Below, in pieces: positions 15,447 through 45,995 of a stretch of DNA of 64,000 bases. The notes beneath the pieces were generated by a model. It saw nothing but the letters and a program-made list of their open reading frames with translations. It ran no database searches and was not told the DNA's origin. Each line of letters starts with the position of its first letter. The stretch's first letter is position 1. This stretch comes from a virus, in IMG/VR virus record IMGVR_UViG_3300036818_000088, positions 1-64,000 of that record; one strand, written 5' to 3'. Made by a program: the position numbers and the translations under genes.

Positions 15447-15639
15447 ATACGCGGTCACGATCCGTGGCCTAGCAGAGCAGGTCGTGTATGTGAAGGCAGA
15501 GTCGCGCTCCGCCGCGCGAGAGGCCGCCCGTAATCGCGAGTTCCACGACGCTCAGGAAATCGACTTCGCTTCGGGTCATCCCGTATGGCCTTCGCGGGAG
15601 CCGGTTGACCTCTTGGAGGTGGAAGGCGATGGCGAGTAG
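15439..15639 (+). CDS. Hypothetical 66-aa protein
   Basis: ATG overlaps the upstream gene and follows AAGGAGG. The pattern YAVTIRGLAEQVVYVKAESRS followed by AREAARNREF is that of small beta-alpha phage proteins with a modulator-like fold. No firm family. Overlaps the PAPS-reductase-like gene. Confidence 0.55.
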   Translation: MAKYAVTIRGLAEQVVYVKAESRSAAREAARNREFHDAQEIDFASGHPVWPSREPVDLLEVEGDGE

Positions 15640-16501
15640 CCCAGCCCAACCGCAGCAACTTCTCGACATTGAGATCTGGCAGGCGTGTGAACGCGCAATC
15701 GAGCAAGAGAACCCCTCCCATGTCTTCGGCCTCTTCTCCGGCGGCCACGACTCAGTGTGCGCCCTGCACCGCATCGCCCAGCACCCACGCTTCACCGCAG
15801 CCGTCCACCTCAACACGGGCATTGGCATCCCCGAGACACGCGAGTACGTCTACGAGACCTGCAAAGCATTCGGCTGGCCCTTGATCGAGATGCACGCCGA
15901 GCGCGAGTACGAGGAGATGGTCCTCGACGGCGTCAAAACAAAGCGCGGCATTAACCGAGGCTTCCCCGGCGGCGATGCTTCCCATAAGACCTATTACCAC
16001 TGGCTAAAGCAACGCCAGATCCGCCGCTTGGTCCGAGAGCACAAGCAGCACGATGGCGACCGCATCGCCCTCTCAACTGGAGCCCGCAGGGAGGAGTCCC
16101 AGCGGCGCATGTCAGCGGCCCTAGCGGTTCCCGTTCGACGTGAGGGCGCCCAGCTCTGGCTGAACCCAATCCTTGCCTTCACTTCCAAAGACAAGGACGC
16201 CGATATGGAGACACACGGTATTGAGCGCAACCCCGTGGTTGACATGCTCCATCGCTCGGGAGAGTGCCTGTGCGGTGCGTTGGCCCAGGCCGACGAAATC
16301 CGCGAGATTGAGCTGTTCTTCCCAGACATCGCGCAACGCATCCACGATCTTGAGGAGAAAGTTGAGAGGGCTGGTATCGCAGCTTGCCGTTGGGCAAATC
16401 GCCTTCCCAGCGGTGTCTCCAACGACCAAGAGGCAATGCCTCTCTGCATCGCCTGTACGCCTGTTTTGGAGGAGCCGATCCGAGGAGCCACACACCGATG
16501 A
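15629..16501 (+). CDS. PAPS reductase-like adenine nucleotide alpha-hydrolase
   Basis: The start is the ATG at 15629 after TTGGAGGTGGAAGG. The PP-loop is SGGHDS (37-42), followed by HLNTGIG, and later GARREESQRR and a C-terminal SGECLCG block with paired cysteines. This is the phosphoadenosine phosphosulfate reductase family as found in phages. Members activate substrates by adenylation; in phage genomes they are suspected of acting in DNA or nucleotide modification (DndC is a distant relative) rather than sulphate assimilation. The substrate is unknown here. Confidence 0.8.
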   Translation: MASSPAQPQQLLDIEIWQACERAIEQENPSHVFGLFSGGHDSVCALHRIAQHPRFTAAVHLNTGIGIPETREYVYETCKAFGWPLIEMHAEREYEEMVLDGVKTKRGINRGFPGGDASHKTYYHWLKQRQIRRLVREHKQHDGDRIALSTGARREESQRRMSAALAVPVRREGAQLWLNPILAFTSKDKDADMETHGIERNPVVDMLHRSGECLCGALAQADEIREIELFFPDIAQRIHDLEEKVERAGIAACRWANRLPSGVSNDQEAMPLCIACTPVLEEPIRGATHR

Positions 16502-17910: not shown

Positions 17911-18265
17911 ACGCTCAGGCGGCATCCTCGGCCGCCTCAGCGCAACGTTCACCGATCCGCGCCGCGTCGGAGGCTCAATCGACCCTGCCACTCGCCAGAT
18001 CGACCCCGAGCGCGCGGTGCTGCTTGAGCGCGTCGCCGTCGCCGAAGTCGCAATGGAGCGCGAGGACGTGGGCGAGTGCGTGCTGGCGATCGAGCTAGCC
18101 GGCAAGCTGAACACGACCAATGAGGAGGCGCGGCTACTGCTGCTCGCCACGCCCGACGCGGCGGCGCTGCTGGTCGCCCAGACACTAGGGCTGGCCCGTC
18201 ACGGCCGCGTCGGGCCTGAGTTCGAGGCTGCGCTTGAGAACAGAATTCGCGAGGCGGCGGGGTAG
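17882..18265 (+). CDS. Hypothetical 127-aa protein
   Basis: ATG at 17882 inside the previous gene's end. An N-terminal basic stretch (SHPTRRRKRSGG) is followed by a helical bundle (LLERVAVAEVAMEREDVGECVLAI). No family recognised. It ends three bases before the cytosine methyltransferase. Confidence 0.5.
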   Translation: MTSHPTRRRKRSGGILGRLSATFTDPRRVGGSIDPATRQIDPERAVLLERVAVAEVAMEREDVGECVLAIELAGKLNTTNEEARLLLLATPDAAALLVAQTLGLARHGRVGPEFEAALENRIREAAG

Positions 18266-18268
18266 GGT

Positions 18269-19303
18269 GTGCGAGTCGGATCGGTCTTCAGCGGACACGG
18301 AGCGCTCGACTTCGGCCTCCACCTCGCCGGCCTTGAGCATGGCTGGTTCTGCGAGTCCGACCCCTTCCGCCGAGACATCCTCTCCAAGCGCTGGCCCGGA
18401 GTCCCAATCTTCGAGGACATCCGAGGACTCGGAGCAGATGACGCTGGATCCATCGATGTCATCGCTGGCGGCTTCCCCTGCCGAGGTATCTCAGCAGCAG
18501 GAAAGCGAGAGGGCTTCGGCCACCCCGAAACCGTTCTGTGGCGAGAGATGCTCCGGACCATTCGCGAGTTTCGACCCCGCTACGTCATCGTGGAGAACGT
18601 GCGCGATCTCCTTGTTCTCCGACCACCCGGAGGACACCCCGGAGACCTCTGGCGAGAGGTTCTTGGAGGGCTTTCCGCGAGCGGGTTCGATGCTGTCTGG
18701 GACGTGCTACCAGCAGCAGCCTTCGGCGCCCCTCACCTCCGTCAAAGGGTCGTCGCCATTGCTGCCCACTCCGACCGTGCAGGATGGGAGCAACGTGGAG
18801 GGCGAGAGCCAGACACGGCGCAACTCCCCGCCGCTGAACGCACTGGTCCGGCTGCTCCCAACCCCAACGGCCAACGACGACAACAAGTCCCCGGAGGCGC
18901 ATCTGGCGATGAAGCGGCGGATGTCGGAGACGGACGGCTCCGACCGCACGCAGATCACGAGCTTGCAGGTACTGGCGAAGGCGGGGTTCCAGCAGCCGAT
19001 GCCGCTCCTTCCGACCCTGACCAGCGCCTCCTACAAACAGGGCGGAACGGCAGCGGAGCAGACGGAGATCAAGCGGATTCTCGGGGTCTTGCCGAGTGGG
19101 GAGAGTACGGATTCGCCATCGAGCGATGGGAGCGAGTCCACGGGCCTGCGCCTAGCCCCCTCATTCGTAGAGTGGATGATGGGTCTTCCCCAGGGGTGGT
19201 CCGATCCCGACTGTCTGCTCTCGGCGACGGAGTTCTCGTTGATCTGGGAATCACAGCGGGGCGCTACGTCCTCGACCTCGACAGAGAAGTAGCCGATGCC
19301 TAA
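18269..19303 (+). CDS. C5-cytosine DNA methyltransferase
   Basis: A 344-aa protein with GTG start. Motif I is SVFSGHGALDFG, motif IV GGFPCRGIS with the catalytic Cys71, motif VI ENV (109-111), motif VIII QRVVAIA, and motif X-like RLSALGDGV near the end. The target-recognition part is low-complexity, because it is overlapped for most of its length by a second reading frame (18438-19292). It presumably protects phage DNA from host restriction or pairs with the nuclease-like protein encoded next. Confidence 0.85.
   Translation: MRVGSVFSGHGALDFGLHLAGLEHGWFCESDPFRRDILSKRWPGVPIFEDIRGLGADDAGSIDVIAGGFPCRGISAAGKREGFGHPETVLWREMLRTIREFRPRYVIVENVRDLLVLRPPGGHPGDLWREVLGGLSASGFDAVWDVLPAAAFGAPHLRQRVVAIAAHSDRAGWEQRGGREPDTAQLPAAERTGPAAPNPNGQRRQQVPGGASGDEAADVGDGRLRPHADHELAGTGEGGVPAADAAPSDPDQRLLQTGRNGSGADGDQADSRGLAEWGEYGFAIERWERVHGPAPSPLIRRVDDGSSPGVVRSRLSALGDGVLVDLGITAGRYVLDLDREVADA
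18438..19292 (+). CDS. Overlapping-frame methylase-associated protein (dual coding)
   Basis: This frame lies entirely inside the C5-methyltransferase gene. It is open from 18234; the ATG at 18438 gives a 284-aa product. It shows features I recognise from a widespread phage family often labelled as cytosine methylase-associated: CGERCSGPFASFDPATSSWR, FLEGFPRAGSMLSG, two LLPTPT segments, and the C-terminal SFVEWMMGLPQGW. These motifs would not arise by chance in a shadow frame. Both frames therefore seem to be used. The GGAG upstream is closely spaced, so the exact start is unsure. Confidence 0.6.
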   Translation: MTLDPSMSSLAASPAEVSQQQESERASATPKPFCGERCSGPFASFDPATSSWRTCAISLFSDHPEDTPETSGERFLEGFPRAGSMLSGTCYQQQPSAPLTSVKGSSPLLPTPTVQDGSNVEGESQTRRNSPPLNALVRLLPTPTANDDNKSPEAHLAMKRRMSETDGSDRTQITSLQVLAKAGFQQPMPLLPTLTSASYKQGGTAAEQTEIKRILGVLPSGESTDSPSSDGSESTGLRLAPSFVEWMMGLPQGWSDPDCLLSATEFSLIWESQRGATSSTSTEK

Positions 19304-20111
19304 ACCCCTAACGCACAGCGAACTGATCGAGCGCCTCCAACGCCGGGTGCTCAGCCATGAGGGCCAAGGGCATCGGGCCTTCCTGCTGACCGAGGTGGGG
19401 CTTGGCTCACGGCGCGCAGATGCGATCAGCATCGGCCTATGGGCTTCGCGCGGGCAGCTTCTCGAAGGCTTCGAGGCGAAGTCCACGCGGGGGGATTGGC
19501 TGCGGGAGTACGAAGACCACCAAAAGGCAGAACCGCTGATGGCTATCGTCGATCGTTACTGGCTCGTCACCAACCCCGATGTCCTGCAACCCGGTGAGTT
19601 GCCCGAGAGTTGGGGCCTGCTCATCTCCAACGGCCGCGGTCGCAACCTGAAGGTCGCCAAGCCGGCGCCGAAGTTGCGCGAGTCAGGTGACAGCGTAGGC
19701 CGTGAAGTCCTCGTCTCGTTGCTGCGGCGCCTGCGTGCCCTCGGTGAGGACGAACGAGCCGAGGTCTATGAACAGGCGCGTGAGGCCGCTGCCCAGTCGG
19801 TTGACTTCGACCGCCGCCGCCTTGAGCATGAAAACGAACGTCTCAAACGTTGGACACAGGAGTTCGAAGAAGGTTGGGATGCCTTCCACCGCGCCCTTGG
19901 ACTCGACCGCTGGAAGTGGCAGCCGACCGTCGAGAATCTCGCCTTCCTCGGCCAGGTCGCCGAAGCCCTGCGTGACGGCCAAGAGGGCCTGGAGCGCCTG
20001 CACCGCGATGTCAAGCACAAGGAAGCAGCAGCCGCTGATCTCGTCGGCCAGCTCAACGATGCGCTCGGCGACCTCGGCGCAGCCATCTACGGCAGGGGGC
20101 AGGCAGCTTGA
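19296..20111 (+). CDS. PD-(D/E)XK-like nuclease with C-terminal coiled coil
   Basis: A 271-aa protein overlapping the methyltransferase stop. Residues 10-110 look like a restriction-endonuclease fold: helix ELIERLQRRVL, RRADAISIG (Asp), EGFEAKSTRGDW (Glu-x-Lys), then YWLVTNP. The rest is helical. A close relation to MmcB-type or restriction enzymes cannot be settled from sequence. Its place between two DNA methyltransferases suggests a restriction-modification or self-discrimination cassette. Confidence 0.55.
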   Translation: MPKPLTHSELIERLQRRVLSHEGQGHRAFLLTEVGLGSRRADAISIGLWASRGQLLEGFEAKSTRGDWLREYEDHQKAEPLMAIVDRYWLVTNPDVLQPGELPESWGLLISNGRGRNLKVAKPAPKLRESGDSVGREVLVSLLRRLRALGEDERAEVYEQAREAAAQSVDFDRRRLEHENERLKRWTQEFEEGWDAFHRALGLDRWKWQPTVENLAFLGQVAEALRDGQEGLERLHRDVKHKEAAAADLVGQLNDALGDLGAAIYGRGQAA

Positions 20112-20851
20112 AGCCCTACTACTCCGAGGGCGGGATTGAGATTTGGCATGGCGATTGTCGAGAGGTGCTGCCGCAGATCGGCCCGGTCGACGCGGTCCTT
20201 ACTGATCCGCCCTACGGCGACACGTCCCTCGACTGGGACCAGCCGGTCAAGGGATGGCTGGACCTGATCGACACTCGCCAGGTTTGGTGCTTCGGGTCAA
20301 TGCGCTTCTGGCTCGAGCACGGTTCCGACTTCCGAGAGAACTGGACCTATGCGCAAGAGATCATCTGGGAGAAGCACAACGGGTCAAGCTTCCACGCCGA
20401 TCGTTTCAAGCGGGTGCACGAGTTGGCCATCCACTGGTATCGCGGCGCGTGGTCGGCGCTCTATCGGAACACGCCGGTCACCCTCGACGCGACTCCGCGA
20501 ACAGTTCGACGCAAGCAGCGCCCGCCGCACACCGGCCATATCGAGGCCGGTTCCTATCGCTCCCTTGACGGTGGCCTCAAGCTCATGCGCTCAGTGCTGC
20601 AGGTCCGCTCTGAGCACGGCCGCGCCGTACACCCGTGCCAGAAGCCGCTCGGCATCCTTACCCCGCTGCTTGGCTGCTCGGTTCCCCAGGGTGGCCTGGT
20701 CCTCGATCCGTTCATGGGCAGTGGGACCACGCTGCTTGCAGCTAAGAACCTGAATCGCCGAGCCATCGGTATCGAGATCGAGGAGCGCTTCTGTGAGGTC
20801 GCCGTCCAACGACTGGCGCAGGAAGTGCTCGATGTCGAGGCGGCATGCTGA
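20108..20851 (+). CDS. N4-cytosine/N6-adenine DNA methyltransferase
   Basis: A 247-aa protein with TTG start overlapping the previous stop. Catalytic motif IV DPPY is at residues 33-36, and the AdoMet-binding LDPFMGSGTT is near 205-215, the beta-class order. KPLGILTPLL precedes motif I as in this class. Together with the C5 enzyme upstream it gives the phage two base modifications. Confidence 0.88.
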   Translation: MKPYYSEGGIEIWHGDCREVLPQIGPVDAVLTDPPYGDTSLDWDQPVKGWLDLIDTRQVWCFGSMRFWLEHGSDFRENWTYAQEIIWEKHNGSSFHADRFKRVHELAIHWYRGAWSALYRNTPVTLDATPRTVRRKQRPPHTGHIEAGSYRSLDGGLKLMRSVLQVRSEHGRAVHPCQKPLGILTPLLGCSVPQGGLVLDPFMGSGTTLLAAKNLNRRAIGIEIEERFCEVAVQRLAQEVLDVEAAC

Positions 20852-45286: not shown

Positions 45287-45995
45287 CTAATCGAGCAACC
45301 CGGCGATCTCCTCAAGCGACCAAATGTGATCGGTCACCCCGGCAGCCATCGCCGGAGTCCGGGGGTAGCGCTCCCTCAGCGCCGTATGCGGGCGAGCGAA
45401 GTTGTAATGGAGGTAGTGAAGGCTGACGGCCTGGGCAAGGTTCTCAATCTTCTTGCTGAATCCGTTGGTCAGCCGCGTGAAGCGGCGCATCCCCATCCGC
45501 ATGGTCAAGTTCTGCCGCTCGACGTAGCTGGTTGAGATCCGGTCAGGATCGGGGTCACCCTTCAGGACTCGCGTTTTCGTGCCGGTGCAGACCGCCGGGC
45601 TGTATTTGCGCTCGGGAGTGCCGCTCTCGGCCCGGTAGGTCTTCATGATCTGCGCCCAGTCGACCTGATGGCGGAAGGATGGCCCTACGGTCCCTTCATA
45701 GATCACGTGCCCGTCGGTGCTTAGCTGGATGCGGCCGGCCATCCGGCTCGCCAGGTCGGTCAGGAAGACTTCGGCATCGTCGGAGGTCCGCTCCCCGACC
45801 AGCCAGGAGGGAACCAGCTTCGTATCGGCGCACAGCGCCGTAAAGGTCCATACGTCGCCGTAGCCATACGTGCCCTTGAATTCCTCTGGCACATTCTTCT
45901 GCTTGGCGTAGCAATACGCCCAAATCTCGTCGGCCTCAATCACTTTGCAGGGGAGATCGACAAACACGCCGTCTTGGTACTCGCGGCCGCACCTT
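45287..45995 (-). pseudogene. IS1-family transposase, N-terminus missing
   Basis: The DDE core is intact: EADEIWAYCYAKQKNVPEE (first Asp), STDGH (second Asp) and YVERQNLTMRMGMRRFTR (Glu), then FSKKIENLAQAVSLHYLHYN and a C-terminal TPAMAAG. The usual 70-100 residue N-terminal zinc/helix-turn-helix part is absent, since an in-frame stop and unrelated sequence lie beyond about 45995. It is therefore probably inactive. The longest open frame starts at GTG 45967. Confidence 0.75.

What the first reader, a model, noticed from the sequence alone, without database searches (positions are those of the whole stretch)
18234..19303. Two conserved proteins in overlapping frames over about 0.85 kb
Frame 1 gives a complete C5-methyltransferase with motifs from I to X. 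Frame 2, entirely within it, carries the signature segments of a second phage family (FASFDPATSSWR, LLPTPT twice, FVEWMMGLPQGW). Long dual coding with both products conserved is unusual, and it explains why the methyltransferase recognition region is low-complexity. The second protein may be a partner or regulator of the methylase.
Basis: partly seen in the sequence, partly recalled or inferred. Interest (0 to 1): 0.8.

Follow-up and report, generated by a model that had tools for sequence, protein, structure and literature searches.

The report
Split methyltransferase in two overlapping frames
One stretch of phage DNA encodes, in two overlapping reading frames, the two halves of a DNA cytosine methyltransferase: one frame makes the catalytic part and the hidden second frame makes the part that probably reads the DNA target, an arrangement that turns out to be common in phages and is often missed by annotation.

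Summary
Frame 1 (18269-19303) is a C5-cytosine methyltransferase. Frame 2 (+1; conserved part about 18438-19292) encodes a second conserved protein matching phrog_1008. Frame 1 is not complete: motifs I-VIII and X are present, but motif IX and a recognizable target-recognition domain (TRD) are missing. Frame 2 supplies them: xPTP modules, then RLAPSFVEWMMGLPQGW (motif IX).

Evidence:
- Across 298 loci, 298 of 323 frame-2 hits overlap a methyltransferase in the same +1 register; 21 lie in the methyltransferase frame itself.
- Real frame-2 scores beat all 50 synonymous shuffles in 256/256 loci.
- The codon position that varies most switches from frame 1 (I-VIII) to frame 2 (TRD, IX) and back (X).
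- Single-chain relatives carry TRD-IX-X in one frame. Phages Phanphagia and Batiatus read nearly identical TRD-IX-X DNA in different frames.

Best reading: a two-subunit C5-methyltransferase, as reported for M.EcoHK31I, with the TRD also on the overlapped subunit. 'Partner' is supported; 'regulator' and 'complete methyltransferase' are not. The pattern is widespread in phages, prophages and plasmids, often with only one frame annotated. Translation, complex formation and specificity are inferred, not shown.

The parts
18269..19303 (+). alpha subunit gene (frame 1): C5-MTase catalytic chain, GTG start, motifs I-VIII and X, no motif IX
   Evidence: PF00145 E 3.3e-34 over residues 1-170; phrog_363 E 7e-55; PDB relatives M.HhaI and M.HaeIII match residues 3-169 only
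18467..18493 (+). alpha motif IV (GGFPCRGIS, catalytic Cys71)
   Evidence: invariant columns in 11 homologues
18590..18601 (+). alpha motif VI (VENV)
18725..18751 (+). alpha motif VIII (GAPHLRQRV)
18764..19096 (+). alpha low-complexity stretch where a TRD would be expected: not alignable between relatives, mostly a by-product of the beta frame
   Evidence: in 37 disjoint pairs alpha codon position 1 (= beta position 3) varies most here
19097..19162 (+). alpha linker WGEYGFAIERWERVHGPAPSP, similar to the linker before motif IX in single-chain relatives
   Evidence: weak match, i-Evalue 0.19
19205..19249 (+). alpha motif X (SRLSALGDGVLVDLG)
   Evidence: alignments; position-3 variation returns here; the profile match is not significant here
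18234..19292 (+). beta ORF (frame 2, +1 relative to alpha), from first in-frame start TTG 18234
   Evidence: phrog_1008 E 7.1e-28
18438..19292 (+). probable beta coding region: ATG 18438 with GGAG three bases upstream (ATG 18456 is the alternative); start not proven
   Evidence: conserved beta homology starts near here
18456..18758 (+). beta N-terminal region (SSLAASPA..., FASFDPATSSWRT, FPRAGSMLSGTCYQ), overprinted on alpha motifs IV-VIII
   Evidence: window real 123.5 bits against at most 76.6 in 50 synonymous shuffles
18759..18851 (+). beta TRD module 1: LLPTPTVQDGSNVEGESQTRRNSPPLNALVR
   Evidence: same module in L003, L007, L058, L064
18852..18986 (+). beta TRD module 2: LLPTPTANDDNKSPEAHLAMKRRM...ITSLQVLAKAG
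   Evidence: 30 loci in +1; related module in the alpha frame of single-chain L216 and L271
19005..19091 (+). possible beta TRD module 3: LLPTLTSASYKQGGTAAEQTEIKRILGVL
   Evidence: sequence pattern only; similar stretch in L010 beta; the module search found no other locus
19149..19199 (+). beta motif IX: RLAPSFVEWMMGLPQGW
   Evidence: matches motif IX of single-chain relatives; alpha positions 2 and 3 constrained, position 1 free

Best explanation
The locus encodes a naturally split, two-subunit C5-cytosine DNA methyltransferase in overlapping genes. Alpha (frame 1) binds AdoMet and carries the catalytic Cys (motifs I-VIII and X). Beta (frame 2, +1) supplies the DNA-reading small domain: an N-terminal region overprinted on alpha motifs IV-VIII, two or three xPTP modules that probably act as target-recognition modules, and motif IX. 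Both chains are probably made separately from one mRNA, beta from an internal ATG (18438 or 18456), and assemble into one active enzyme. Alpha's own sequence across the TRD stretch is then mostly a by-product of coding beta. Its likely role is phage self-methylation against host restriction. Shown here: dual coding, fixed register, frame-switching constraint, and homology of frame 2 to the TRD-IX part of single-chain enzymes. Inferred: separate translation, heterodimer formation, which modules read DNA, the methylated sequence, and the biological role.
For: (1) Register: 298 of 323 frame-2 profile hits overlap an MTase ORF at exactly +1, 21 are in the MTase's own frame, and the one without an MTase is on a contig cut at its end. 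(2) Synonymous shuffles: real frame-2 score above all 50 shuffles in 256/256 non-training loci, means 116 against 31 bits. (3) Frame of constraint: in 37 disjoint pairs, difference rates at alpha positions 1/2/3 are .18/.13/.44 (I-IV).20/.12/.34 (VI-VIII over beta N-term).38/.25/.28 (TRD).29/.13/.15 (IX).20/.14/.44 (X). (4) Fusions: L271, L216, L297 and phages Derg, Batiatus and xhp1 carry xPTP modules, motif IX and motif X in the MTase frame. phrog_1008 matches both their C-terminal halves (E 1e-52 for L271, 1e-60 for L216) and the window beta (E 7e-28). A profile of single-chain C-terminal halves matches window beta at TRD and IX (E 2.3e-9). (5) Natural experiment: nearly identical TRD-IX-X DNA is the +1 ORF in phage Phanphagia and in frame in Batiatus. 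(6) Five other phage loci with ordinary C5 MTases show no frame-2 hit. (7) Precedent: M.EcoHK31I, large subunit motifs I-VIII and X, motif IX on the small polypeptide (PMC3404938).
Against: No expression or activity data. The window beta has only a weak Shine-Dalgarno candidate. AlphaFold2 gives the window beta low confidence (pTM 0.31) and leaves the xPTP region of a single-chain relative unfolded (pLDDT below 50, residues 197-350), so the TRD role of the modules rests on position and conservation. The beta N-terminal region is partly predictable from alpha's conserved protein (non-training loci: shuffles average 27.5 bits, real 66.3), and a similar +1 stretch persists in single-chain relatives. 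PMC3404938 places the predicted TRD of M.EcoHK31I in the large subunit, unlike this model.
Confidence: 0.87

Rival explanations
1. Programmed ribosomal frameshifting joins the two frames into a single methyltransferase chain.
For: All segments of a single-chain enzyme are present in order across the two frames, and the +1 register is constant. In the layout where beta carries TRD, IX and X (Catalina L001, RemusLoopin L002) one +1 shift would be enough.
Against: In the window and most relatives motif X is back in frame 1, so a +1 shift followed by a return shift would be needed. No slippery site was looked for. M.EcoHK31I is described as two polypeptides (PMC3404938).
Confidence: 0.06
2. Frame 2 is a by-product of conserved frame 1 in a GC-rich genome and is not a gene.
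For: GC-rich genes often leave a second frame open (5 of 50 shuffles of the window gene stay open); the N-terminal part of the frame-2 profile is partly predictable from alpha.
Against: Real scores beat every shuffle in 256/256 loci. Constraint switches to frame 2 in TRD and IX. Frame-2 ORFs are open at 43-44% GC too (L315, L316). Related modules are read in frame in single-chain enzymes.
Confidence: 0.02
3. Frame 2 encodes an independent accessory protein (regulator, anti-restriction factor or substrate adaptor) not required for methylation.
For: It has no counterpart found by sequence in solved structures (no match), and its N-terminal region has no counterpart in the single-chain enzymes' own frame (inference).
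Against: Alpha lacks motif IX and any conserved TRD while frame 2 has both; frame-2 modules and motif IX occur covalently joined in methyltransferases; frame 2 was almost never found without an overlapping or fused MTase.
Confidence: 0.05

Closest known systems
M.EcoHK31I (YGGCCR), two-polypeptide C5 methyltransferase (Lee et al. 1995, cited in PMC3404938)
   Same: Large chain with motifs I-VIII and X; motif IX on a second polypeptide (PMC3404938). From my own knowledge, not read here: its beta gene lies inside the alpha gene in another frame.
   Different: PMC3404938 places its predicted TRD in the large subunit; here the conserved TRD-like modules are on the overlapped frame and alpha's stretch is low-complexity.
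M.AquI (CYCGRG), split C5 methyltransferase (PMC3404938)
   Same: Catalytic part and recognition/IX part on separate polypeptides. The layout with TRD, IX and X all on beta in actinophages (Catalina L001, RemusLoopin L002) is closer to M.AquI.
   Different: M.AquI splits inside the variable region and puts X on the small subunit; here X stays on alpha and the overlap is about 0.85 kb.
PHROG phrog_1008 'DNA methyltransferase'
   Same: Matches the window beta (E 7e-28) and the C-terminal halves of single-chain MTases.
   Different: Named simply DNA methyltransferase, with no note that it is an overlapped recognition subunit.
Adjacent 'DNA methylase' gene pairs in Mycobacterium, Streptomyces and Arthrobacter phages
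   Same: Same alpha/beta pair, beta always +1 and overlapping alpha.
   Different: The annotated overlap is shorter (about 30-270 bases) and alpha ends before motif X.

Membership tests
C5-cytosine DNA methyltransferase (alpha) | Catalytic motifs I, IV (PC), VI (ENV), VIII (RxR) | tested here: met
   PF00145 E 3.3e-34; invariant columns
C5-cytosine DNA methyltransferase (alpha) | Motif IX and TRD in the same chain | tested here: not met
   Profile of single-chain C-terminal halves finds TRD and IX in window beta, not in alpha
Split C5-MTase of the M.EcoHK31I layout | Large chain I-VIII plus X, motif IX on a second chain | tested here: met
   Window anatomy; IX in beta and no X in beta in 199 of 267 non-identical loci; layout from PMC3404938
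Split C5-MTase of the M.EcoHK31I layout | Second gene overlaps the first in another frame | tested here: met
   298 of 323 frame-2 hits at +1, overlapping; that M.EcoHK31I shares this is from my own knowledge
Split C5-MTase of the M.EcoHK31I layout | Predicted TRD in the large chain | tested here: not met
   Alpha TRD stretch unalignable; constraint there follows beta
Split C5-MTase of the M.EcoHK31I layout | Sequence homology to M.EcoHK31I alpha and beta | not tested
   Sequences not held; closest E. coli case found is prophage locus L313
Split C5-MTase of the M.EcoHK31I layout | Both polypeptides needed for methylation | not testable with these tools
   needs expression and an activity assay
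M.AquI-type split | Motif X on the small subunit | tested here: not met
   X is in alpha in the window; X in beta in only 9 of 267 loci

The most novel reading that the evidence does not exclude
A widespread class of phage, prophage and plasmid C5 methyltransferases hides its DNA-recognition subunit in the +1 frame of the catalytic gene. Its interchangeable xPTP recognition modules (one to about seven per locus) can be read either in frame or in the hidden frame, so one stretch of DNA alternates which frame is under selection, and many 'single' phage methyltransferases in the databases are only half an enzyme.
Probability: 0.6. Interest if true: 0.78.

Novelty: new variant of a known kind. Interest (0 to 1): 0.62.

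Why it matters
Genes annotated as stand-alone DNA cytosine methyltransferases in phages, E. coli prophages and plasmids appear to lack the part that reads DNA, because it lies unannotated in the overlapping +1 frame. Cloning alpha with recoded codons would destroy beta without anyone noticing. The locus is also a clear case of long same-strand overlap in which selection can be seen to switch frame and switch back, with natural single-chain and split versions of the same DNA for comparison, and it may be a source of modular cytosine-methylation specificities.

Tried and rejected
Frame 2 against the PDB by profile: no match. Pfam and NCBIfam: no match for frame 2. PADLOC: nothing for frame 2. 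AlphaFold2 on the window beta: low confidence, so no fold search was run on it. AlphaFold2 on single-chain L271: catalytic part and C-terminal IX/X part confident, xPTP region not; Foldseek finds M.HhaI and M.HaeIII. A first shuffle run failed and a second scored the window on the wrong stretch; repaired. The M.EcoHK31I paper is not held. L032 beta against plasmids and L048 DNA against E. coli: no match; L311 worked. Window-only pair statistics against L009-L011 are too small to stand alone. Rejected: frame 2 as a regulator, as an open-frame artefact, and as a frameshift product in this locus.

Full report
OBSERVATION. The window is part of a 76,181-base IMG/VR virus record. Frame 1, GTG 18269 to 19303, is a 344-residue C5-methyltransferase; Pfam PF00145 (E 3.3e-34) covers residues 1-170 only. 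Frame 2 is the +1 frame; its stop-to-stop ORF is 18189-19292 and its conserved part is about 18438-19292. Frame 2 matches phrog_1008 (E 7.1e-28) and has relatives in 103 phage records at E 1e-5.

WHAT FRAME 1 LACKS. Motifs I-VIII and a motif X (SRLSALGDGVLVDLG) are present in frame 1. Between VIII and X the chain is low in complexity and cannot be aligned between relatives, and motif IX is missing. A profile built from the C-terminal halves of three single-chain methyltransferases, none of them from the window, matches frame 2 at the TRD stretch and at RLAPSFVEWMMGLPQGW (full-sequence E 2.3e-9). It matches frame 1 only weakly, at the WGEYGFAIERWERVHGPAPSP linker (E 0.19), and the resemblance at motif X is visual. 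A single-chain enzyme is thus laid out in order over the two frames: TRD in frame 2, linker in frame 1, motif IX in frame 2, motif X in frame 1.

IS IT DUAL CODING? Loci came from two contig collections and phage records. Of 323 frame-2 profile hits, 298 overlap a methyltransferase ORF at exactly +1 and 21 are in the methyltransferase frame itself. In loci found by searching with the methyltransferase alone, 79 of 80 also carry the +1 frame-2 hit; this set was seeded from relatives of the window, so it is not a survey of all C5 methyltransferases. When codons are permuted among identical amino acids within each gene, frame 1 is unchanged but frame-2 resemblance is lost: real scores exceed all 50 shuffles in 256 of 256 loci not used for the profile (means 116 and 31 bits).

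WHICH FRAME IS CONSTRAINED WHERE? In 37 disjoint pairs of relatives (landmarks could be placed in 99 loci), the rates of difference at alpha codon positions 1, 2, 3 are .18/.13/.44 before the beta homology.20/.12/.34 over motifs VI-VIII.38/.25/.28 in the TRD stretch.29/.13/.15 at motif IX and .20/.14/.44 at motif X. Alpha position 1 is beta position 3. Position 3 is highest in 37 of 37 pairs in the alpha-only part; position 1 is highest in 28 of 31 pairs at motif IX. The frame under constraint switches to beta and back to alpha.

WHAT FRAME 2 IS. Single-chain methyltransferases in Xylanimonas (L271), Amycolatopsis (L297), a viral contig (L216) and phages Derg, Batiatus and xhp1 carry xPTP modules, FVEW(L/M)MG-type motif IX and motif X in the methyltransferase frame. 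phrog_1008 matches the C-terminal halves of L271 and L216 at E 1e-52 and 1e-60. Module PTPVANDDNKSPEAHLAMKxRM...ITSLQV is found in +1 in 30 loci, including methyltransferases of a visibly different lineage (L017, L027), and a related module sits in the methyltransferase frame of L216 and L271. The clearest case is a pair of closely related Cheoctoviruses: nearly identical TRD-IX-X DNA is the separate +1 gene in Phanphagia (L006) and part of the methyltransferase chain in Batiatus (L308), which has an extra insert that changes the phase. Frame 2 is therefore best read as the recognition-plus-motif-IX subunit of the same enzyme.

LAYOUTS. In 267 non-identical loci, motif IX is in beta and X is not in 199, IX and X are both in beta in 9, IX is in alpha in 21, and 38 were not resolved by the pattern used.

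SPREAD. The same pair is present in Salmonella phage S9-5 (L311), an E. coli prophage (L313), an Acinetobacter baumannii plasmid (L315) and a Leptospira plasmid (L316); the last two loci have 43-44% GC, and in all four only alpha is annotated. Lactobacillus phage Lc-Nu also carries an unannotated beta. Five other phage loci with C5 methyltransferases (phi3T/SPbeta hybrid, Wphi, RB43, Javan107, PhiCh1) have no frame-2 hit. Actinophage annotators do list both genes as DNA methylase.

MECHANISM. The most likely mechanism is two chains, translated separately and assembling into one enzyme. For M.EcoHK31I the large subunit is reported to hold motifs I-VIII and X with the predicted TRD, and the small one motif IX (PMC3404938); that its genes overlap in different frames is my own knowledge, the original paper not being held. 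[quoted passage not shown] A frameshift product is unlikely here because motif X returns to frame 1. An internal ATG with a nearby Shine-Dalgarno match is found in 74 of 143 loci for beta, against 17 and 14 in the two other frames; in the window the candidate ATG 18438 has GGAG only three bases upstream.

LIMITS. Nothing here shows expression, assembly or activity. AlphaFold2 did not resolve the xPTP region, so the claim that each module reads DNA is inferred from position between motifs VIII and IX and from modular sharing. The N-terminal part of beta is partly predictable from alpha and persists as a +1 stretch in single-chain relatives. One lead not followed: prophage m5C methyltransferases of Paracoccus aminophilus showed relaxed multiple specificity when cloned (PMC3925955); whether they are of this kind was not tested.

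VERDICT.

Noticed in passing
window 19296-20111: ORF directly after the methyltransferase (ATG overlaps its end) matches phrog_14517 and, more weakly, phrog_5429 (DNA repair protein); it has a GxRADA...FEAKSTRGDW pattern that looks like a PD-(D/E)XK-type nuclease of the MmcB kind (the nuclease reading is by eye).
   Followed up: partly
window 20108-20851: A second DNA methyltransferase of the N6/N4 type (PF01555 E 1.3e-29) follows, so the phage carries two methyltransferases close together.
   Followed up: partly
window 45287-45967, minus strand: A 226-residue ORF that reads like an insertion-sequence transposase lies among the phage structural genes (by eye).
   Followed up: no
window 15605-16501: An ORF that resembles a PAPS-reductase/phosphoadenosine-type enzyme (SGGHDS motif), by eye only.
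   Followed up: no
L314 (E. coli PCP07014), about 1864-1870: The alpha gene is annotated as a pseudogene with an internal stop; the beta frame is also interrupted within a few bases of the same place.
   Followed up: partly
L308 (phage Batiatus) 1835-2230: Although Batiatus has a single-chain methyltransferase, a +1 ORF with a beta-like N-terminal region and one xPTP module remains inside it.
   Followed up: partly
L289 2659-3633: Beta with seven xPTP-type modules by pattern count, which suggests a multispecific enzyme.
   Followed up: no
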